This document shows positions 41,712-55,728 of a DNA stretch of 64,000 nt, piece after piece. Made by a program: the position numbers and the translations under genes. The stretch's first letter is position 1. Every line of letters starts with the position of its first letter. Below the pieces are notes generated by a model. That model made no database searches. It was not told the origin of the DNA and saw nothing but the letters and a program-made list of their open reading frames with translations. Source of the stretch: Fusobacterium ulcerans (lineage in GTDB: Bacteria; Fusobacteriota; Fusobacteriia; Fusobacteriales; Fusobacteriaceae); NCBI RefSeq assembly GCF_003019675.1, contig NZ_CP028105.1, positions 2,744,282 through 2,808,281 of the forward strand. The letters are read 5' to 3'.

Positions 41712-44700
41712 ATGAGAAAAGGTGACATTGAAAAATCTCTAAAGAGGTTTTTGAAAAGAAAAGTCAGTTATTCTCTTTCGCTTTTGATAGCCTTCATGAT
41801 AACAGGAGGAATATCTTTAGGTGCAGGAATAACAGCAGAGGAAATACAGGAAACTAAAAGCGATCTTTTAACTAGGATTCAAACAGAACGAGAAGAAATA
41901 AAAAGGAAAATAGCAGAAAATGAAAGACTGATAAAAGAATATAATTCAGACTTTGTGGAACTTGTAAGAAAGGGAGATTTTTATTCAAAACCTTTATTCA
42001 ATAGTACACAAATCTTTTTTACTTATCAATATTTAGATAATGGGAAAATGAAAGACAAAACAGAAAAGGAATTTTCTGAAACTATAGATGCAATAAACAA
42101 GCATTACGGAACAAGAAGTGGAAGAAGTATTCTTAGGTCTTCTGGGAATATAGGGAAAGACAAAATAATGTCTGGTAATGGAGTAGCTGTTGATAATGAG
42201 AGTTTCAGTGAAACAATTAATTTAGGAGCAAATATTAAATCATTAAATCCAGAATTACCAATAATAGAGCCAAATATAAATGTAAGTGTAACAACACCAA
42301 CAGTAAATCTTGGAGGACTTCCTGGAACTGTAAATCCTGTAGTACCAGTAATATCATCAATAACAGCACCAGTAATAATACCTCCAACAGCACCAATGGG
42401 GGCATCAGTGTCAGTGGCAACACCAAGTGCAGTAGCTGCAATATCAGTAACAGCACCAACAATAACAACACCAAATACACCAGAGGATAAAAATATTGAA
42501 GTGGCTCCTATAACAGCACCAAAAGGATTTACACCAACAATAATAATCACTCCAAATAAACCAGGAGCACCACAGGTAATAGTTCCACAAGACTTTACTC
42601 CACCAGTAATATCATTTAATGGAACTGGTTTTGGTCAGGGATCAGCTATAGATACGCCAAAAAGTAATATCATTATCCAGAATTATGATACATATACTAC
42701 AGATACTCCTGTAATAATAACAACTGGAAGTGCTGGAACAACTTGGACAGGAGGAACAATAACAACAGTAACAAATACAAACGGTTCTTCTTATCCAGCA
42801 ACACCAGGAACATATCAATTAGCACCTGGTTCTACTACAACATTATTAAATGCGTTTATTAATGAGCTTAGAGATCATAATGCTAATATTGGTGGAGAAT
42901 ATGTAATGAAGGATGCAGGAGGAGGGAATACAACAAAAATATTCTTAAGTCATAATCCTGCTGGAGTTGGTGGGATAGGAGGATCATATCATGGAATCAA
43001 CGCTGCTGGAGAAAGAAGAGCTGTATTTTCTGGAAAATTAGAATTGCAAGGAATTGCAGCTACAAATAATACCAATGTTCTAGTTGGAGTAGAACATCAA
43101 TTATGGAATGCAAATTGTCATGTAGGAGCATATTCTGTATTTGAAAATAGAGGAGAAATATTATTATCTAGTGGAAATAATATAATTGGAATAATGATTG
43201 ATACTGAAACTTCTCCAAATGCAGGAAGTGCAAGACATAAAACAATTAATACTGGGAAAATAATTATCAATAGCCAAAATAGTATAGGTATTGATTTTGG
43301 TAATTATGTTAATAATTACTTATTGGTAGATGTTTCTGTAGGAAATATTGAAGTTAATGGGGAAAATAACTATGGATTAAGAATGAATGACATACATGGA
43401 AACACATATTTTGATAATGGAGTTACAATAACTTCAGGATTAAACTCAAGTAATGCTGCAACAAAAATTACTGTTGGTGGAAAAAATAATGTAGGAGTAT
43501 CTATTGCAAAATATTTGTCAAGTGCAGCAAATATTAATCCAATAGCTAATATTTCAAACTTGAATATAGAAGTTACTGGAGAAAATGTTGTAGGATTCCT
43601 GAGAAATGCTAATTATTCAGCAAATAATATAAATGATATGCTGTTAAATAGTATAACTATGGGGACATTCAGTTTTGGGGCTGGGGCTAAAAATAGTGTT
43701 CTTGTAAGAAGTGATAAATATGGAATCCAGATAAGTAAAGATATAAGCTCTACACTAGGGTCTACGGGAAATATATTTGCTCAGGCAACTAAAACTGGAA
43801 AAATAATAAATAATGCAAAATTAAGCAGCACTTTAGGAAGCTTTACTGGACTTCTTTCAAGTGGGACTACTGGAGCTTCTGTAGAAAATAAAGGAACTGT
43901 AGAAATAACTGGGTCAGGAAATAATAATGTAGGAATAGGAGTATTAGATACAGCTATTGGAAGTAATAGTGGAACTGTAAAAGTTCTTGGAACAGGAAAT
44001 AATAAATCAGGAATATATAATACAGGAACATTTACTATTTCCAATGGAAGTAATATAGAGGTTTCTGGAGAGGCTTCTTCTGGAATATATAATGAAAGTA
44101 CAGTAAATATAAGTGGAACTGTTGCTTTAAAAGGAACTGCTGGAACAACAGGAATATACAGCAATGGTGGAACAATAACATCAACATCAGGAAACGCATT
44201 GAGTATAAGTATAGATGATACATCAAATCCAACAACAAAAGGATTAGCTGTATATGCAGAAGGTGGAGCAAACGTAACTCTTGGAGCTGCTAAAATAGAA
44301 GTAAAAAATGGAGCAGCAGGAGTAGCAGCCTTTGGAGCAGGAACAAGTATCAGTCTGATAGGTTCAGAATTAAAATATTCTGGAGAAGGATATGCTGCAT
44401 ATTCTGATGGGAATGGAACAATTAACTTAACTAATGCTAAGTTAGAGCTTTCAGGAAAAGCAACAGGAGTAGAACTTGATCTGCTTGCTCCTAAAGTAAC
44501 ATTAAATGGAACAACAATCACAATGATGTCAAATGATGCTACAGTAGCAAATCTGAAAAATGCAACTGGGCTTCTTTCTAATAGTTTAAAAAGTACTGTT
44601 GAAACAAATCTGGGATCAGGAGTAAGTATAGTAGATGGATTTGATGGTGTTACTACATTTGATAAATATAAAATAGCAACTGTAGATGGTGGAGATTTAA

Positions 44701-47700
44701 CTATTGATGCTGATATGGATAAATATAGCCAAAATGATACTACTACTGGATATTTTTATTCTAGAAGATTTTTAGGGCAGAGACTTAACCTCACAGTTGC
44801 TTCTGGTAAGACAGTAACAGCTTCAACTGATACAGCATATGCAACTTCATACTTTAACAACCAAGTAGTAGGACTGGAGATGAACTCAAGTAAAGCTGCT
44901 ACAAGTGCAACAGATGCACAAATCAATTTATTGGCTAATTCTAAAGTAATAGCTGATAGAACAGATGCAGGTGCTGGAGCAATAGGACTGTACATGAATT
45001 TTGGTAAAGTAGATATTGCAGCAGGTGCAGTAGTGGAAGTAGAGAAAGAAACATCTGGAGGAAATATTGTAAATGCAGGTGGAGTAGGAGTTTATGCTGT
45101 AAATGGAAGCACTGTAACAAATGCTGGTGAAATCAGTGTAGCAGGAAAAAATGCTATAGGAATATTAGGAATGGCATATAGAGAACAGCCTGTAGGAACT
45201 CCTCTGGTAGATGAGTTTGGAAATACAGGAATTTTTACAAATCAAGGAAAAATAGAAATTATTAATAATCAGGATATTAAACTTGATGGAACTGGAACTA
45301 TAGGTATCTATGCATATAACAACAGTGGAGGATCAAGCGCAAATTCCAAAGCAACAAATACAGGAACAATAGAGGTAGGAGAATCAACAGCTACAAATGC
45401 TGCTATAGGAATCTATGGAGATAAGTCTCTCATTGCCAATAGTGGAAATATTAAAACAGGAAAAGAAGGAATTGGAATTTATGGTATTAAAGGTTCAACT
45501 ATCAGTAGTCTTGGAACTCTTACATTGGGAGCAGATGGAATTGGTGTAATGGTTGATGGGACATCAAATATTACAGCTACATCAGTAATTCTTGCAGCAG
45601 GATCAGGAACAGATGCAAATGGTAAAACTGGTATTTTCTACAAAGGAACAGGTTCAGAATCACAAAGTATAGGTATAGCTATAGATGCTTCAGCTTTTGA
45701 TAAAGGAACAGCTGTATTTGTAGAAAATATGAATCTGTCATCTGGCGGACAGATAGATGTAGGAAAAGATGGAGTCGGTATTTTCCTAAAAGGAAATACA
45801 AGCGCCAATACAGCAACTAATACAGGAATTATCAATCTGACAGGAACAAAAACTGGTGCTGTTGGTATGTATACAAAGATAGGGAAAATAATTAATACAG
45901 GAACTATCAATGTAAATAATTCTACTCATATAGGAATGTATGCTGAAGGTCCTGGAAACACAGTTGCCAATGGAAATATAATAAATCTTAATGTAAATAA
46001 CTCTACAGGTATCTTTGTTAAAGATGGTGCGAAGGCAGAGCTAAATATAGGAAATACCATCAATTTCATACCAGGAACATCAGATAGTCTGGGAGTATTT
46101 GCACACAAAGGTGAAGTTGAATTTAAAGACAATATTCTATTTTCAAATAATAATGAAAATAAGAACATCTATGTTTATGGTAAAGATGCAACTGTTGGAA
46201 TAGATCCTGTAAAAACTGTAACAGTAGATGGAGTAGGAACTCCAACAACAGCAGGAAATAAAACTGTAGGAATCTATCTTGAAAATGCTGGTACTGGAAG
46301 TACATTTACAAGTAATACAACAGGGCAGCTTGTTGTTCAAGGTGAAGCAGTAGGTATCTATTCAAAAGGCAATAATACTTTAAATGTAAATGTAACAGCT
46401 ATAGGAGAAAAAACTACAGGAGTATTTATTGATGGAGGATCAACTATCACAGGAACTGTAACTGCCAGAGGTGCATCAGGAGTAGGAGCAGTAGGAGTAT
46501 ATGGAAGTGGTGGAGCTGTAACAATAGGCGCAGGAGGATTAACTCTTAATACAGATCTGGATAAAGGAACAGGAATGTATCTTACTGATGGGGCTTATGC
46601 ATCTGGAGGAAAAATCACAGTAAACAATACAGCTACAGTTGATAATATAGGAGTATACTACAGCAAGGGAACAGCTTCAGGAACTGTAACAAATGGAGCT
46701 GAAGTTGAACTTACAGGAAATAAAAGTATAGGAATATATGCAGCAGATGGAATAAATCTTGTTAATGCTAAAAATATAACATCAACAGGGGGAAGTAATA
46801 ATATAGCTTCATATGTAGGAGGAAACTCAACACTGACTTCAAATGGAAATATAACTATGACAGGTACAGGCAGCAACATAGGTATATATACAGGAAAGGG
46901 AAGTGGAATAAATAATGGAGCTATTGATTTAACAGGATCTACAGGAACATCATCAGCAGGGATGGTTGCTAAAACTGATGCATCATCAGATACAGCTTCT
47001 GTAGAAAACAAGAATACAATTACAGTAGGAAGCAATCTTGGAATGTATGTAGCAGGGAATGGAACAAGTTCAGGAAAAAATACAGGAACAATAACTGCAA
47101 CAACAGGAACAGGAGTATATGTAGATGGAGCAGCTCACAGCTTTAACGGAACTGGAGGAACTATTGCATCAAATGCAGTAGGAATTTATCTGAAGGATAC
47201 AGGTGCAAATAAAATCACTGCTGGAACTTTAAATATAGGTTCAGGAGGAGTAGGAGTATTTGGAGAAAATGCCAAGATAGACTTTGCAGTAAATGTAACA
47301 GGAGCAGAAGCAGTAGGAGTTGCAGCTGAAAGTGGAACAGTAATATCAGGAAATATAACAACAGGACAGGATTCTGTTGGAGCATATGTACTGGATAATA
47401 CAGTTTCATTTAATGGATCTGTAATTACAACTGGTACTAACTCATCAAATACATCAATAGGAGTACTTCTGGCAAATGGAATAGGAACATATACTATGAA
47501 CAATGTAACTGTAAATGCTAAAAATGGAGTAGGAATCTATCTGGGAACAGGAGCTAATCTTACACACAATGGTACAGTTACTACAGAAAATGGAATAGGT
47601 ATCTATGTAGCAAATGGAACTACTCTTACAACAGGTACAACTGTTCTGAATGTAAAAAATGGTGGAACAGGTGTATATATAGATCAGGGAACAGCTAATC

Positions 47701-50700
47701 TTGGAACAACAGGAAGCCTTACATTTAACTTCTCATCAGGAGGCGGAATAGGAATATACAATAATGGCGGAACAATGAATATTGGAAGCAATATCAGTGT
47801 TACAGGATCAGGTTCTCTTGCAGCTACAAAAGATGGAAGCCTTACATCAAGCGGTACACTAAATATAGGAACAGGAGCAGTAGGACTTTTAGGAGAATAT
47901 GGAGCAGCTACAACTACTCCTAAAGAAATAAGAAATACAGCTTCAGGGATTATCAATGCTACTAGCGGAGGAATAGGACTTGCAGCTATAAAATCAGGAG
48001 CAGGACCAGGAGCTCTAGTGACAATAACAAATGCTGGAACTATCAGCGCATCTGGACAGTCTGCTGGAAATGATCCATCAATAGGAATATATACAGATAC
48101 AGCAAATGTAGTAAATACTGGAACTATTAATGTAGGAGCTAATGGAATAGGAATATATGCAGTATTTAATGGTACAGGAATTACAGTCCAAAATAATAAT
48201 GTAAAAATGAATGGAAGTAATGGAATAGGAGTTTATCTGAAAGATGGAGCAGCTCTTGCATCAGGAAACAGCATAACAGGATCAGGTTCAAATAATACAG
48301 GACTTGTACTTGAAAATACAGCTGTACCAGCATCTGTAGGAACTATTTCACTTGGAGCAGACAGTATTGGAGTAATGGCTACAGGAGCAGCTGCAACAGG
48401 AATAATTAATGGAAATATATCAGTAGGTGCTGGAAATAACGCAATAGGTATTGTAGCAACAAACGGTGCTAATGTTACACTTAGCGCTGCATCTACAGTT
48501 ACAACAGGAGTTAACGGAATAGGAGTATATGTAAATACAGCATCAACAGCTGTGGTGAATGATGCTTCTAAAGTAAGTGTAGGAACTGGAGGAGTATACC
48601 TTTATTCAAATGGGGGAAATTTATCATTTGCTGGAAATCTTGTTGTAAATGATCAGATAGGAATCGCTGCTAATGGGGGAACTGTAACAACACTTGGAGC
48701 AACATCAATTACAGTAACAAATGGTGGAATAGGAGCATACATCAAAGGTTCTGTACCAACACTTACAGGGACTGCTATTAATCTGCAAAGCGGAACAGCT
48801 TCAAAATATTCAATGGGTATCTACTATGATGGTGTAACTGGAATAGGAACAGCTCCAACTATCAATCAAACAGGAAACTATACAATAGGAATGGTATTGA
48901 ACAATTCATCTGGTACAGCCAGCGGAGTAAATATTTCAGGACAGAACCAAATAGGAATTATGGCGCAGCAAGGGTCAGTACTTAATGCTGGTGGAACAGT
49001 GACAATAGCAGGAGATAAAAATATAGGAATCTATGGAGATAATAGTAATATCACAGCAAATTCAGGAATTTTCGTAGGAAATTCTACATATACAGCTGAT
49101 AAGAGCAGTTCGTCTATTGGAATATTTATGAAAGGTGGAACATATACTGGAAGTGGAAATGTTACTGTAAAAGAGAACAGTATAGGAATCTATGGAGATC
49201 AGATGACAGGAGGAAGTATAACTCATCTGGGAGTAGGAAATGTCATGACTCTTGAAGATAACGCTATTGGTTTTTATGGAACAGGAACATCTGGAAATAT
49301 GGAAGCAGAATTTACAGGTGGAACTACAGGAGGAAATGGAACAATTGCCTTCTATGGTAAGGGAATTAATATGAAGGTTACTTCAGATATATCTCTTGGA
49401 AATAATACAGCTGTAGGAATTGTAAGTCAAGGAACTGGAAATGTGACATATAATGGCGCTATAAGTGTAGGAGAGAAGTCTATTGGTATCTATAAAGCTG
49501 ATGGAGCAGGAGTAATTACAACATCAGCAGGGAACTGGAATATAGGAAAAGGTGGATACGGTATCTATGCAAAACAATCAGGAGCACTGGCATCAACAAT
49601 AAATAATGGGGCTAGTATGATACTTGATACATCAGCAGTTGGAATCTTCTCTGATGGAAAGAATAAAGTATATAATTCTGGAAATATAACAGTGGGAGCT
49701 ACTGATTTAGGACCATCAGGAGATCATAGTAAAACTGACGACCATTTAAACTCTGTTGGAATGTATCTGGCAGGAGGAACTATTGCAGAAAATACAGGAA
49801 CAATAACTGTTAATCATGATCATTCAGTAGGAGTTTATGTAACAGGTACAGGAAGCTACTTTACAAATAAAGGAGCTGGAGTACTGAACATTGACGGCGG
49901 AGGAGTAGGAATCCTTGTAAAAGATGGAGGAATAGCATTAAATGAAGGAACTATTACTCTGGGAACTAATCTGGCAGCATGTGGAGCAGAAACTGTAGGA
50001 ATGGCAGCATTTAATGGTGGAAGAATTCTTAATACAGGAACTATAAATGTAAATGCTGGAGTAGGAATGCTTGTGGAAACTGGAGCTGTTCTTGATAATA
50101 CAGGAGTTCTTAATGTAACTGGTGGTGTAGGAATACAGGGAGCAGGAACAGTTATAAATAAAGGAACTATTAATGTATCAGGAAGCGGAACAGCAACAAA
50201 TCTTGGTGGATCATCTGGTCCAGCTAACATAGGTGCTGTAAAAATAGAATCTGATGGAACTATTACAATTAATGATCAGTATGTAGCTATTGGAGGAACA
50301 TTAAATGCAGCAGGAGCCATTGTTGTAAATGGCGCTTATGTAGATGTAACAACAGGAGTACCTATGTTTAATGCTTCAAATGTAACTGGAGAGGTAAAAC
50401 TGCTTTCTAACTTTGCATCTACAGGAAATGGAATTTCATATCTATTCCAGAATTTCCTAAATACAGCAGCAGGAACAGTATCAGGTTCAAAACTAACTAC
50501 AAAGACATCACCATTGTTTGTAGCGAAGATAACAACAGATGGACATTTAGCTGTGGTGAAAAGACCATATGCCGACCTTACAATAGGGGAGCAGTTCGAT
50601 GCTATGGATAAAGGACTTGACAATATACTTAAAAATAGTGGTGGAAGCGGAAGAGATGCTGAAATACTAAAAGGTTTAAATGAATATTTAGATGGATTAG

Positions 50701-51707
50701 CAGCAGACCAGTTTGAAAGAGAAACATCACAAAAGCTTTCAGAATTCAGAGGGGATATATATGCAACTATTCAAGGAAGAATGCAGGATATCAACAGAGC
50801 ATTTGACAACTCTTTCTATGAACTTGAATCTTCATACAATCTGACAAAAGACAGCAGTAAATACAGTGTTATCTATACTGATGGAAACTACAAAGATTCT
50901 ACTTTAGGAATAGATGACTATGATTACAAAGTAATGGGGCTTCTGTATATGAAAGAAAAAGAAGGGTCAGAATATGGAAGCAAATATGGATATACAGTAG
51001 GATTTGCAGGATCGAAGTTTGACTTTGATGATGGTGGATCAAAAGAGGATGTATACTCATTGAGAGTAGGAGCACATAGAGTTAAAAATCTAAGTGAGGA
51101 ACATAAAGTATCATGGCTGTCAAGAATAGAGCTTGGATACAACAGACATATTGCTAAGAGAAAGCTTAATCTTCATGAAACATTTGAAAACAAAGGAGAG
51201 TACAATACTTACTCTGTAGCACTTGACAACAGACTTACAAAGGTTATCTATACAGATCTGTCTAGACAGTTGGATGTATATGCTGATTTAGACTTAGAGT
51301 ATGGAAAAATAGATGACTTTAAAGAAAGCGCTGGAAGCAAAGGCGGACTTGAAGTGCAGATTAAAGATAATGATTATCTAAGCGCACAGGCAGGAGCTGG
51401 AGTGAAGGCATCTCAAAGAATCTATGCAGGAAATGATATCTCAGTAAAAGTAACAGCAGATGTAAAATATGCATATGAATTTGGAGACAACTATGATGGA
51501 AACAAAGCAAGACTTAAAAATGGAGAGGAAGGATATTACAGCTTAATCACTCCAGAAGAGAGAGAAGGAAAACTGACTGGTAAGATTGGACTTACAGTAG
51601 AAAAAGCCAACCACATGGGAGTAACATTCGAAGTGGAAGCAGCAGATGAAAGTCATAAGAAAGATTCATCAATTAAATATGGTGTAAGATTCAATTACAA
51701 ATTCTAA
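41712..51707 (+). CDS. giant RadD-like type Va autotransporter, cassette 3 (3,331 residues)
   Basis: The conserved N-terminal domain (1-170) and barrel (~3,050-3,331, ending NYKF) match the other giants. The linker at ~175-300 is rich in Pro and Thr (for example TAPTITTPNTPEDKN). Residues ~300-780 are unique. From nt ~46230 to ~47373 the sequence is nearly identical to nt ~24004-25147 of copy 1, beginning at GVGTPTTAGNKTVGIYLENA. Before and after that tract they diverge clearly. The repeats GIGIYVxNGTTL and NTGTINVGxxxIG build a long beta-helix. No RHH gene or intercistronic hairpin follows. Confidence 0.9.
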   Translation: MRKGDIEKSLKRFLKRKVSYSLSLLIAFMITGGISLGAGITAEEIQETKSDLLTRIQTEREEIKRKIAENERLIKEYNSDFVELVRKGDFYSKPLFNSTQIFFTYQYLDNGKMKDKTEKEFSETIDAINKHYGTRSGRSILRSSGNIGKDKIMSGNGVAVDNESFSETINLGANIKSLNPELPIIEPNINVSVTTPTVNLGGLPGTVNPVVPVISSITAPVIIPPTAPMGASVSVATPSAVAAISVTAPTITTPNTPEDKNIEVAPITAPKGFTPTIIITPNKPGAPQVIVPQDFTPPVISFNGTGFGQGSAIDTPKSNIIIQNYDTYTTDTPVIITTGSAGTTWTGGTITTVTNTNGSSYPATPGTYQLAPGSTTTLLNAFINELRDHNANIGGEYVMKDAGGGNTTKIFLSHNPAGVGGIGGSYHGINAAGERRAVFSGKLELQGIAATNNTNVLVGVEHQLWNANCHVGAYSVFENRGEILLSSGNNIIGIMIDTETSPNAGSARHKTINTGKIIINSQNSIGIDFGNYVNNYLLVDVSVGNIEVNGENNYGLRMNDIHGNTYFDNGVTITSGLNSSNAATKITVGGKNNVGVSIAKYLSSAANINPIANISNLNIEVTGENVVGFLRNANYSANNINDMLLNSITMGTFSFGAGAKNSVLVRSDKYGIQISKDISSTLGSTGNIFAQATKTGKIINNAKLSSTLGSFTGLLSSGTTGASVENKGTVEITGSGNNNVGIGVLDTAIGSNSGTVKVLGTGNNKSGIYNTGTFTISNGSNIEVSGEASSGIYNESTVNISGTVALKGTAGTTGIYSNGGTITSTSGNALSISIDDTSNPTTKGLAVYAEGGANVTLGAAKIEVKNGAAGVAAFGAGTSISLIGSELKYSGEGYAAYSDGNGTINLTNAKLELSGKATGVELDLLAPKVTLNGTTITMMSNDATVANLKNATGLLSNSLKSTVETNLGSGVSIVDGFDGVTTFDKYKIATVDGGDLTIDADMDKYSQNDTTTGYFYSRRFLGQRLNLTVASGKTVTASTDTAYATSYFNNQVVGLEMNSSKAATSATDAQINLLANSKVIADRTDAGAGAIGLYMNFGKVDIAAGAVVEVEKETSGGNIVNAGGVGVYAVNGSTVTNAGEISVAGKNAIGILGMAYREQPVGTPLVDEFGNTGIFTNQGKIEIINNQDIKLDGTGTIGIYAYNNSGGSSANSKATNTGTIEVGESTATNAAIGIYGDKSLIANSGNIKTGKEGIGIYGIKGSTISSLGTLTLGADGIGVMVDGTSNITATSVILAAGSGTDANGKTGIFYKGTGSESQSIGIAIDASAFDKGTAVFVENMNLSSGGQIDVGKDGVGIFLKGNTSANTATNTGIINLTGTKTGAVGMYTKIGKIINTGTINVNNSTHIGMYAEGPGNTVANGNIINLNVNNSTGIFVKDGAKAELNIGNTINFIPGTSDSLGVFAHKGEVEFKDNILFSNNNENKNIYVYGKDATVGIDPVKTVTVDGVGTPTTAGNKTVGIYLENAGTGSTFTSNTTGQLVVQGEAVGIYSKGNNTLNVNVTAIGEKTTGVFIDGGSTITGTVTARGASGVGAVGVYGSGGAVTIGAGGLTLNTDLDKGTGMYLTDGAYASGGKITVNNTATVDNIGVYYSKGTASGTVTNGAEVELTGNKSIGIYAADGINLVNAKNITSTGGSNNIASYVGGNSTLTSNGNITMTGTGSNIGIYTGKGSGINNGAIDLTGSTGTSSAGMVAKTDASSDTASVENKNTITVGSNLGMYVAGNGTSSGKNTGTITATTGTGVYVDGAAHSFNGTGGTIASNAVGIYLKDTGANKITAGTLNIGSGGVGVFGENAKIDFAVNVTGAEAVGVAAESGTVISGNITTGQDSVGAYVLDNTVSFNGSVITTGTNSSNTSIGVLLANGIGTYTMNNVTVNAKNGVGIYLGTGANLTHNGTVTTENGIGIYVANGTTLTTGTTVLNVKNGGTGVYIDQGTANLGTTGSLTFNFSSGGGIGIYNNGGTMNIGSNISVTGSGSLAATKDGSLTSSGTLNIGTGAVGLLGEYGAATTTPKEIRNTASGIINATSGGIGLAAIKSGAGPGALVTITNAGTISASGQSAGNDPSIGIYTDTANVVNTGTINVGANGIGIYAVFNGTGITVQNNNVKMNGSNGIGVYLKDGAALASGNSITGSGSNNTGLVLENTAVPASVGTISLGADSIGVMATGAAATGIINGNISVGAGNNAIGIVATNGANVTLSAASTVTTGVNGIGVYVNTASTAVVNDASKVSVGTGGVYLYSNGGNLSFAGNLVVNDQIGIAANGGTVTTLGATSITVTNGGIGAYIKGSVPTLTGTAINLQSGTASKYSMGIYYDGVTGIGTAPTINQTGNYTIGMVLNNSSGTASGVNISGQNQIGIMAQQGSVLNAGGTVTIAGDKNIGIYGDNSNITANSGIFVGNSTYTADKSSSSIGIFMKGGTYTGSGNVTVKENSIGIYGDQMTGGSITHLGVGNVMTLEDNAIGFYGTGTSGNMEAEFTGGTTGGNGTIAFYGKGINMKVTSDISLGNNTAVGIVSQGTGNVTYNGAISVGEKSIGIYKADGAGVITTSAGNWNIGKGGYGIYAKQSGALASTINNGASMILDTSAVGIFSDGKNKVYNSGNITVGATDLGPSGDHSKTDDHLNSVGMYLAGGTIAENTGTITVNHDHSVGVYVTGTGSYFTNKGAGVLNIDGGGVGILVKDGGIALNEGTITLGTNLAACGAETVGMAAFNGGRILNTGTINVNAGVGMLVETGAVLDNTGVLNVTGGVGIQGAGTVINKGTINVSGSGTATNLGGSSGPANIGAVKIESDGTITINDQYVAIGGTLNAAGAIVVNGAYVDVTTGVPMFNASNVTGEVKLLSNFASTGNGISYLFQNFLNTAAGTVSGSKLTTKTSPLFVAKITTDGHLAVVKRPYADLTIGEQFDAMDKGLDNILKNSGGSGRDAEILKGLNEYLDGLAADQFERETSQKLSEFRGDIYATIQGRMQDINRAFDNSFYELESSYNLTKDSSKYSVIYTDGNYKDSTLGIDDYDYKVMGLLYMKEKEGSEYGSKYGYTVGFAGSKFDFDDGGSKEDVYSLRVGAHRVKNLSEEHKVSWLSRIELGYNRHIAKRKLNLHETFENKGEYNTYSVALDNRLTKVIYTDLSRQLDVYADLDLEYGKIDDFKESAGSKGGLEVQIKDNDYLSAQAGAGVKASQRIYAGNDISVKVTADVKYAYEFGDNYDGNKARLKNGEEGYYSLITPEEREGKLTGKIGLTVEKANHMGVTFEVEAADESHKKDSSIKYGVRFNYKF

Positions 51708-53662: not shown

Positions 53663-53693
53663 AAAAAGCTCCCCTGAGATATGGGGAGTTTTT
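53663..53693. terminator. bidirectional intrinsic terminator
   Basis: CTCCCC and GGGGAG form the core of a stem flanked by A and T runs, between two convergent genes that end at 53646 and 53695. Confidence 0.8.
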
Positions 53694-53694
53694 A

Positions 53695-54228
53695 CTATGT
53701 ATTAATAAATTTATTATACAATTTTACAGAAACAATTCCTAAAATACACCCGATAACAGCCCCCATTATTACATCACTAGGATAGTGTACAAAGAGATAT
53801 AACCGTGAGTACCCTATTATAAAAGCAAAAATAAATGCACATATTCCCCATTTTTTATTCTGAGAAAATAATACAGCTGCTGAAGCAAAAGATGCCATTG
53901 TATGCCCAGAAGGAAAAGAAAAATCTTTTGGAGCAGAAATCAGTAATTGTGTAAAATTAACCAGATCAAATGGTCTTATTCTTCTGACTAAAGGTTTAAG
54001 AATAATATTTCCAATTAATGCACATAGAAAAATCGAGATAAACATCATTATTCCAATTTTTCTGTATTTCTTTATAACCATAAGAACACAAGCAAGCACT
54101 ATCCAGAAAATCCCAACATTTCCTAATTTTGTCACTAAGGGCATAAACTTATCAAGAAAAAGATTTCTATGATGTTCTTGAATGTAGAATAAAATCTGTA
54201 TATCAGTAGATTCAAAAAGATGAAGCAT
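53695..54228 (-). CDS. PAP2-family membrane phosphatase
   Basis: I choose ATG 54228 (177 residues) because AGGAGG lies just upstream; a longer reading would include that site. Five to six membrane helices carry the three PAP2 motifs KPLVRRIRP, PSGHT and SRLYLFVHYPSD, with both catalytic histidines. Family members remove phosphate from lipid carriers such as undecaprenyl diphosphate or from phosphatidate at the outer face of the inner membrane. Its start overlaps the end of the upstream sigma-like gene by 17 bases, so they are cotranslated. Confidence 0.85.
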   Translation of the reverse strand: MLHLFESTDIQILFYIQEHHRNLFLDKFMPLVTKLGNVGIFWIVLACVLMVIKKYRKIGIMMFISIFLCALIGNIILKPLVRRIRPFDLVNFTQLLISAPKDFSFPSGHTMASFASAAVLFSQNKKWGICAFIFAFIIGYSRLYLFVHYPSDVIMGAVIGCILGIVSVKLYNKFINT

Positions 54229-54706
54229 TATTCCTCCTAACATAATCTTCTATTTTTATAAACTTTTCAATTTTTCTTTCTATTCCTTTAATTCTTTTTG
54301 TTATGAAAGTAGTATCCATACCAGTTTCTTTATAAATTTTATCTTGATCAATATCAAGGATAAGAAGATTCAAAAGCTGGTTCTCCATTTTTGTCAAATG
54401 AGTTTTAAGAAAAAATTTAAATGAATCATTGGAAAAACTGCTGCTGTAATATGTTATATCAGAATTTTCAAAGATTATGCTTAATATTTTATTTTTTTTA
54501 TTTGTTTTGCTCACAAATTTTAGCTGGAGATAAATATAATGAAATACAATTTCAGAAAAAATCTTAACTATTTTAGAAATAAAAGATTTAAGAAATTCTT
54601 TTAAAATTTCAGCATATTTTTCATAAAAAAGAAAATCCTGAACTTTAAAAGTGATAATAATAGAAGATGTCAACTTTGTATTGGATGAAATTGAAAAATT
54701 TTTCAT
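54212..54706 (-). CDS. degenerate sigma-70-like protein
   Basis: The 164-residue protein aligns with the sigma factor encoded at 55135-55728. FLKTHLTKMENQLLNLLILDIDQDKIYKE corresponds to YLKTHLSPMENEIFEYMLAEMTYTEIAEK (region 4). FSEIVFHYIYLQLKFVSKTNKKNKIL corresponds to FTTFALLCIKRQIITALKNSNSGKNRIL (end of region 2). The acidic core of region 2 (DREDVMQEAMIG in the paralogue) is lost. It has a good ribosome binding site (AGGAGGT) and an intact frame, so it is kept rather than decaying. It could be an alternative sigma factor with unusual specificity or a decoy. It leads an operon with the PAP2 phosphatase. Confidence 0.55.
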   Translation of the reverse strand: MKNFSISSNTKLTSSIIITFKVQDFLFYEKYAEILKEFLKSFISKIVKIFSEIVFHYIYLQLKFVSKTNKKNKILSIIFENSDITYYSSSFSNDSFKFFLKTHLTKMENQLLNLLILDIDQDKIYKETGMDTTFITKRIKGIERKIEKFIKIEDYVRRNNASSF

Positions 54707-54928
54707 AAAATAACCTCCTATTAGTTAAGACTAATTTTGTTTGCAACAAATATTAACATATTATTACAATATTATAGCATAGGAAATATTTTAAGTAAAT
54801 CAAGATTAATAATAATATTTTAAAAATAACAAGATTTAAAGATATAATTTAATTAAGAAATAAAATAAAAATTAATCATTAAAAAATTTATAAAAATAAT
54901 TAAATTTAATTTTTTATAAAAAATATGT

Positions 54929-54934
54929 TATAAT
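54929..54934 (+). promoter_or_regulatory. possible -10 box of the small membrane peptide
   Basis: TATAAT is present about 50 bases before the TTG start at 54985. The -35 region (TTAATT at 17 bases) is weak. Confidence 0.3.
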
Positions 54935-54984
54935 GTTAAAAATTTAATTTAATCATTTTATGACTTATAGGTGGAAGTGGTCAG

Positions 54985-55077
54985 TTGAGAGTAAAATTAT
55001 TTTTAATTATGTTGGGAATTGGTTTAATGGGAGTAGTAGTGGCTGAACTCCTATTTTTAGAAAAATTAATGATTTAA
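54985..55077 (+). CDS. possible 30-residue hydrophobic peptide
   Basis: From a TTG start the frame reads MRVKLFLIMLGIGLMGVVVA and then ELLFLEKLMI before TAA, a single membrane helix with a basic start. A GGTGGAAG ribosome-site-like sequence lies about eight bases upstream and a strong terminator follows nine bases after the stop. The small size, own promoter-like box and terminator fit a small membrane protein or type I toxin-like peptide. Translation is unproven. Confidence 0.35.
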   Translation: MRVKLFLIMLGIGLMGVVVAELLFLEKLMI

Positions 55078-55085
55078 AAAAGCAT

Positions 55086-55127
55086 CAATCCCTTTACACA
55101 GCACTACAGAACTGCGTAAAGGGATTG
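55086..55127. terminator. bidirectional intrinsic terminator
   Basis: CAATCCCTTTACACAG and CTGCGTAAAGGGATTG pair along 16 positions with one mismatch. On the minus strand it is followed by CTTTTTT and serves the sigma factor gene; on the plus strand it ends the small peptide transcript. Confidence 0.75.
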
Positions 55128-55134
55128 TTCTTGA

Positions 55135-55728
55135 TTATTCTTTTTCATATTCTTCAATGAAAGTTTTTAGTTTTTTCTTTATTCTTTGGATACTGTTGTC
55201 TACAGATTTTAATTCTCTTCCAGTCTTTTCTGCTATTTCAGTATAAGTCATTTCAGCAAGCATATATTCAAAAATCTCATTTTCCATAGGGCTTAAATGT
55301 GTTTTTAAATATTTGTTTAAATACTTCATTTTCTCTTTACTTAGATAAATTTCTTCTGGATTATAAAAATTGAAAGATTTGTTGTCATATGTAAGATCTG
55401 CTTCATCTTCATCATCAGAAGAAGTAGAAACTGCCATATTTAATATTCTGTTTTTTCCAGAGTTAGAATTTTTTAATGCAGTTATAATTTGACGTTTGAT
55501 ACATAATAGAGCAAAGGTTGTAAAAGAAGCATTCTTATTTTCATCATAAGCATTAATGGCTTTTAAAAGCCCAATCATAGCTTCCTGCATAACATCTTCT
55601 CTATCACCACCATGAAAGAAGTATTTTTTTGTTTTGAAAATCATAAGTTGTTTAAAGCTTTCAAAAATTTGTTGTATGGCGTCTTCATCACCCTCTTGAG
55701 CGGCATGAATAGTGTGAATATTTATCAT
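55135..55728 (-). CDS. sigma-70 family RNA polymerase sigma factor (SigH-like)
   Basis: The 197-residue protein has region 2 at ~25-90 (GDREDVMQEAMIGLLKAINAYDENKNASFTTFALLCIKRQI), the core-binding and -10-reading part. An acidic linker (SSDDEDEADLTYD) follows. Region 4 at ~135-190 (LSPMENEIFEYMLAEMTYTEIAEKTG...SIQRIKKKLKTF) has a clear helix-turn-helix. It most resembles the SigH/sigma-30 group of Firmicutes-type regulators rather than the housekeeping factor. AAGGAGGAAAAAA precedes the ATG. It is monocistronic, with a terminator shared with a convergent small gene. Confidence 0.85.
   Translation of the reverse strand: MINIHTIHAAQEGDEDAIQQIFESFKQLMIFKTKKYFFHGGDREDVMQEAMIGLLKAINAYDENKNASFTTFALLCIKRQIITALKNSNSGKNRILNMAVSTSSDDEDEADLTYDNKSFNFYNPEEIYLSKEKMKYLNKYLKTHLSPMENEIFEYMLAEMTYTEIAEKTGRELKSVDNSIQRIKKKLKTFIEEYEKE

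What the first reader, a model, noticed from the sequence alone, without database searches (positions are those of the whole stretch)
54212..55728. Degenerate sigma factor coupled to a PAP2 phosphatase beside an intact SigH-like factor
The 164-residue protein aligns with regions 2 and 4 of the neighbouring sigma factor but lacks the acidic region 2 core. Its gene overlaps a lipid-phosphatase gene. It may be a divergent sigma factor, or a decoy that competes for core polymerase or for region-4 partners, with envelope functions as its output.
Basis: partly seen in the sequence, partly recalled or inferred. Interest (0 to 1): 0.6.

Follow-up and report, generated by a model that had tools for sequence, protein, structure and literature searches.

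The report
Stripped-down sigma factor copy beside phosphatase
A small Fusobacterium gene is a fast-evolving, shortened copy of a family of sigma factors (the proteins that aim RNA polymerase at promoters); it kept the part that docks on the polymerase flap and reads DNA but has no recognisable core-binding domain, so it is probably a minor regulator rather than a working sigma factor.

Summary
The 164-aa ORF is real. Its residues ~68-154 are sigma region 4 of the neighbouring SigH-like family (shuffle z 9-16 against close paralogues; profile match 97%), although Pfam and NCBIfam see nothing. The claimed region 2 match is not supported: residues 1-66 score no better than shuffles; only the 'KNKILN' stretch after region 2.4 is shared. 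It is not a pseudogene: three species keep it open at ~60% identity with dN/dS 0.45-0.55 (95% limits below 1). It is narrow (3 of 98 Fusobacteriota genomes); a fourth close species has PAP2 and the promoter but no gene. The 17-nt overlap with PAP2 is not conserved (23-nt gap in both relatives), but the two genes look like one unit: shared extended -10 promoter upstream, terminator after PAP2, separate terminator after sigH. Region 4.1 is best kept (46% identical, 85% similar); the recognition helix has changed (24%). Most likely a sigma-derived accessory or regulatory protein that acts through its region 4 fold (polymerase flap or DNA); the mechanism is inferred, no binding was tested. More striking context: these species carry four to six close SigH-like paralogues.

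The parts
54212..54706 (-). Shortened sigma-like protein, 164 aa; residues ~68-154 = end of sigma region 2.4, linker and region 4; residues 1-66 unassigned
   Evidence: orthologues L002 1489-1977(-), L003 1486-1965(+)
54714..54719 (-). Ribosome binding site AGGAGG of the sigma-like gene
   Evidence: sequence; same AGGAGGTTATTTTATG in both orthologues
54771..54799 (-). Promoter TTTACT-17-TATAAT with extended -10 (TG), conserved in four genomes including the one that lacks the gene
53695..54228 (-). PAP2-family lipid phosphatase, 177 aa from the ATG behind AGGAGG (54233-54238); motifs KPLVRRIRP, PSGH, SRLYLFVHYPSD intact
   Evidence: motifs read from the sequence
53669..53688 (-). Terminator after PAP2
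55135..55728 (-). Intact SigH-like sigma factor, 197 aa, one of four close paralogues in this genome
55086..55127 (-). Terminator separating the sigH-like gene from the sigma-like gene
   Evidence: 17 pairs
54985..55077 (+). 30-aa TTG-start peptide with one probable membrane span, divergent to the sigma-like gene, conserved in four genomes

Best explanation
A duplicated SigH-like sigma factor gene was shortened and rebuilt in one Fusobacterium clade into a small regulator. It keeps the region 4 fold, above all helix 4.1, and has no recognisable core-binding region 2, so it should not form an ordinary holoenzyme. Shown: descent from the SigH family, selection to keep the frame, operon signals shared with PAP2. 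Inferred: it acts through its region 4 fold, by docking on the RNA polymerase beta-flap or on a partner of region 4, to tune transcription by the SigH-like paralogues and/or of its own operon.
For: Region 4 homology; model of residues ~92-158 at pLDDT ~68-86 whose best structural match is F. nucleatum sigma-H 3mzy, Z 9.9 over 66 residues, rmsd 1.4 (the alignment held sigma rows, so this leans towards sigma); 4.1 at 46% identity and 85% similarity against 24% identity in the recognition helix; dN/dS 0.45-0.55 with upper 95% limits 0.71-0.87; frame open in three species where neutral drift would leave stops in ~99% of runs; own promoter, RBS and terminator.
Against: Fast evolution (~60% identity between orthologues where SigH keeps 99%; dN/dS ~50 times that of SigH) and absence in G007 speak for a weak or dispensable role. 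No binding data. Residues 1-85 have no identified fold (pLDDT 30-51). A pure DNA-binding role is not excluded.
Confidence: 0.45

Rival explanations
1. It is a DNA-binding helix-turn-helix regulator of its own PAP2 operon or of other genes, without polymerase contact.
For: Region 4 is a helix-turn-helix; LuxR-type domains give structural scores close to those of sigma; invariant basic residues K137 and R138 lie in the changed recognition helix; the gene is first in the operon.
Against: The best kept element is 4.1, not the recognition helix; no operator was sought or found.
Confidence: 0.25
2. It is a still-active but divergent sigma factor: the N-terminal half is a worn region 2 that still binds core and melts promoters.
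For: The alignment with the family is colinear and the stretch after region 2.4 is 55% identical; shuffling residues 1-80 lowers the profile score in 98 of 100 trials.
Against: Residues 1-66 are indistinguishable from shuffles; gaps of 6 and 4 residues fall in 2.3-2.4; the QE of 2.2 reads KE or KN; no Pfam or NCBIfam sigma match.
Confidence: 0.12
3. It is a decaying paralogue without function.
For: Fast evolution, relaxed dN/dS, absent in one of four clade members, narrow distribution.
Against: No stops or frameshifts in three species, dN/dS below 1 with 95% limits excluding 1, RBS and promoter conserved.
Confidence: 0.1
4. It is the region-4 half of a split sigma factor like SigO-RsoA of Bacillus, needing a separate region-2 partner.
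For: Region 4 with no recognisable region 2, the layout of SigO as described in PMC8103513.
Against: All ten Pfam region-2 matches in the genome lie in frames of 157 aa or more; no small region-2-only frame was found.
Confidence: 0.05

Closest known systems
SigH-like sigma factors of Fusobacterium (PDB 3mzy, F. nucleatum sigma-H; NCBIfam TIGR02859 / PRK08295 models)
   Same: Homologous region 4 and end of region 2.4; colinear order; an intact member is the neighbour gene
   Different: About 35 residues shorter; region 2.1-2.3 not recognisable; recognition-helix residues changed; fast evolving
SigO, region-4 subunit of the Bacillus subtilis SigO-RsoA pair
   Same: Region 4 protein without a recognisable region 2 of its own
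   Different: No separate region-2 partner found in the genome; homology to SigO not tested directly
YlxM / UPF0122 (PDB 1xsv, 1s7o)
   Same: Small protein with a sigma-4-like helix-turn-helix (Z 7.8 to 1xsv)
   Different: Different sequence family; this one descends from SigH paralogues and has an extra N-terminal part
Bacteriophage T4 gp33
   Same: From my own knowledge: binds the RNA polymerase flap in place of sigma region 4; a possible way of working
   Different: Phage protein, no sequence relation tested; flap binding untested here

Membership tests
sigma-70 family sigma factor | Region 4 homology | tested here: met
   z 11-16 for the C-terminal half, profile probability 97%
sigma-70 family sigma factor | Region 2 with core-binding 2.2 and promoter-melting 2.3 | tested here: not met
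   N part scores as shuffles; no Pfam Sigma70_r2 match in any of three orthologues
sigma-70 family sigma factor | Core RNA polymerase binding and promoter-directed initiation | not testable with these tools
   needs biochemistry
SigO-RsoA split sigma | Separate region-2 partner protein | tested here: inconclusive
   no small region-2-only frame among Pfam matches in the genome; a divergent partner would be missed
YlxM/UPF0122 | Sequence family membership | tested here: not met
   no Pfam match to any family for this protein
pseudogene | Disrupted frame or neutral evolution | tested here: not met
PAP2 phosphatase (neighbour gene) | PAP2 domain with the three catalytic motifs | tested here: met
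   PF01569 5e-24; motifs read in the sequence

The most novel reading that the evidence does not exclude
A chromosomal sigma decoy: a sigma-derived protein that occupies the polymerase flap (or the region-4 partners of the SigH paralogues) and tunes competition among an expanded set of close SigH-like factors, while the same transcript makes a lipid phosphatase.
Probability: 0.2. Interest if true: 0.65.

Novelty: new variant of a known kind. Interest (0 to 1): 0.33.

Why it matters
It would be a traceable case of a sigma factor losing its core-binding half and being kept by selection for something else, with intact paralogues and an absent state in close relatives for comparison. It also points to an expanded SigH-like set in these fusobacteria for which my paper searches found no description.

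Tried and rejected
Searches for homologues in genome contigs and viral contigs, plasmids and phages found none; the first two back-translate short peptides, leave out near relatives of the window's genome and can miss fast-evolving proteins. Pfam and NCBIfam gave no match; the PDB sequence search gave only chance hits. The fold from the three orthologues alone was unusable (pLDDT 42); the 14-sequence model is usable only for residues ~92-158. Foldseek gave no match below E 0.001. The parent paralogue could not be resolved: the stem branch is too long (2.2-3.0 changes per site). PAP2 homologues elsewhere are not next to a similar protein: a few loci held weak sigma-like or chance matches, none convincingly related to this protein. 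Apparent frameshifts in the SigH-like gene and PAP2 of G001 were not resolved and may be assembly errors.

Full report
What is there. On the minus strand, in order of transcription, lie a SigH-like sigma factor (55135-55728), a strong terminator (55127-55086), a promoter (54799-54771, TTTACT-17-TATAAT, extended -10), the 164-aa protein of the finding (54212-54706), a PAP2 phosphatase (53695-54228) and a terminator (53688-53669). The sigH-like gene and the finding's gene are therefore likely separate units, while the finding's gene and PAP2 are likely one. This rests on consensus signals, not on transcript data; promoter-like sites in this AT-rich region are no more frequent than in shuffles, but this one is conserved in four genomes.

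Is it a sigma relative? By Pfam and NCBIfam it is nothing. Against the close SigH-like paralogues its C-terminal half scores 11-16 standard deviations above shuffles, with 0 of 500 reaching the observed value, and a three-orthologue profile matches the family profile with 97% probability over residues 17-154. Splitting the signal shows where it comes from: residues 89-164 alone score 64.5 against a shuffle mean of 12.8, whereas residues 1-66, 1-80 and 1-88 alone are within shuffles; scrambling residues 1-66 leaves the full score unchanged, scrambling 1-80 lowers it in 98 of 100 trials. So region 4 and the end of region 2.4 (KNKILS or KILN against KNRILN) are shared; a region 2 in the first 66 residues is unproven.

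Which parts are kept? Helix 4.1 is 46% identical and 85% similar to the paralogues; the recognition helix is 24% identical; region 2.1-2.2, where the paralogues are 88% alike, is 19% identical. From established knowledge, sigma region 2.2 binds the beta' clamp, and region 4 docks on the beta-flap and reads the -35 box. The pattern fits loss of core-clamp binding and of the old DNA specificity while a region 4 scaffold is kept. That is inference.

Is it a live gene? Orthologues in G002 and G001 are 62% and 60% identical, with the same RBS and promoter. Pairwise dN/dS is 0.46-0.55 with bootstrap 95% limits of 0.29-0.71, 0.34-0.87 and 0.32-0.87. In a neutral simulation at 0.2-0.25 changes per site about 1% of runs kept the frame open. 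Between close relatives PAP2 has dN/dS 0.14-0.16 and SigH 0.01, so this gene is constrained, but much less than its neighbours. Of 98 Fusobacteriota genomes only three hold it; the other matches are region 4 of ordinary sigma factors. In G007, whose SigH is 99% identical, the promoter stands upstream of PAP2 and the gene is missing. An ATG in the matching place, followed at once by TGA and without the AGGAGG, suggests a loss rather than an ancestral absence, but in such AT-rich DNA this is only suggestive.

Overlap. PAP2's likely start is the ATG at 54228 behind AGGAGG, giving a 17-nt overlap. In both orthologues the upstream stop codon comes 23 nt before the PAP2 start, so the overlap is a property of this species, not of the arrangement.

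Structure. The three-orthologue AlphaFold model is not usable (mean pLDDT 42). With sigma paralogues added to the alignment, residues ~92-158 reach pLDDT of about 68-86 and the best structural match is F. nucleatum sigma-H 3mzy (Z 9.9, 66 residues, rmsd 1.4). Because sigma rows were in the alignment this agrees with, but is not independent of, the sequence result, and LuxR-type helix-turn-helix domains score close behind.

Interpretation. The most economical reading is a duplicated and shortened SigH-like factor turned into a small regulator that acts through region 4. Whether it binds polymerase, a partner of the sigma factors, or DNA cannot be told from sequence. A split sigma like SigO-RsoA (described in PMC8103513) is less likely because no separate small region-2 protein was found among ten Pfam matches in the genome.

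Context. The genome holds four close SigH-like factors (the other three are 65-72% identical to the window's: at 2462132, 2681756 and 2743094) plus a more distant one (39%) beside a gene that reads as leucyl-tRNA synthetase; G002 has six close ones and a further one at 52% on an 89-kb contig. The papers found on Fusobacterium sigma factors treat sigma-E; none found here describes this expansion, though the library is partial.

Noticed in passing
G000:C1 2462132, 2681756, 2743094 and window 55135-55728: Four close SigH-like sigma factors (65-72% identical to the window's) scattered in one genome; close species have four to six. No obvious anti-sigma gene was seen in the flanking ORF lists, but this was not tested by family search. 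Their separate roles are unknown.
   Followed up: partly
window 54985-55077 (+): A 30-aa TTG-start peptide with one probable membrane span (LRVKLFLIMLGIGLMGVVVAELLFLEKLMI), conserved at 73-90% identity in the three other genomes with this locus, including the one lacking the sigma-like gene.
   Followed up: partly
window 41712-51707 (+): A 3331-aa autotransporter-like protein just upstream of a peptide-binding lipoprotein gene.
   Followed up: no
L003 470-620 and 2120-2200 (G001): The SigH-like gene and PAP2 each appear frameshifted in G001 while the sigma-like gene between them is intact; could be assembly error.
   Followed up: no
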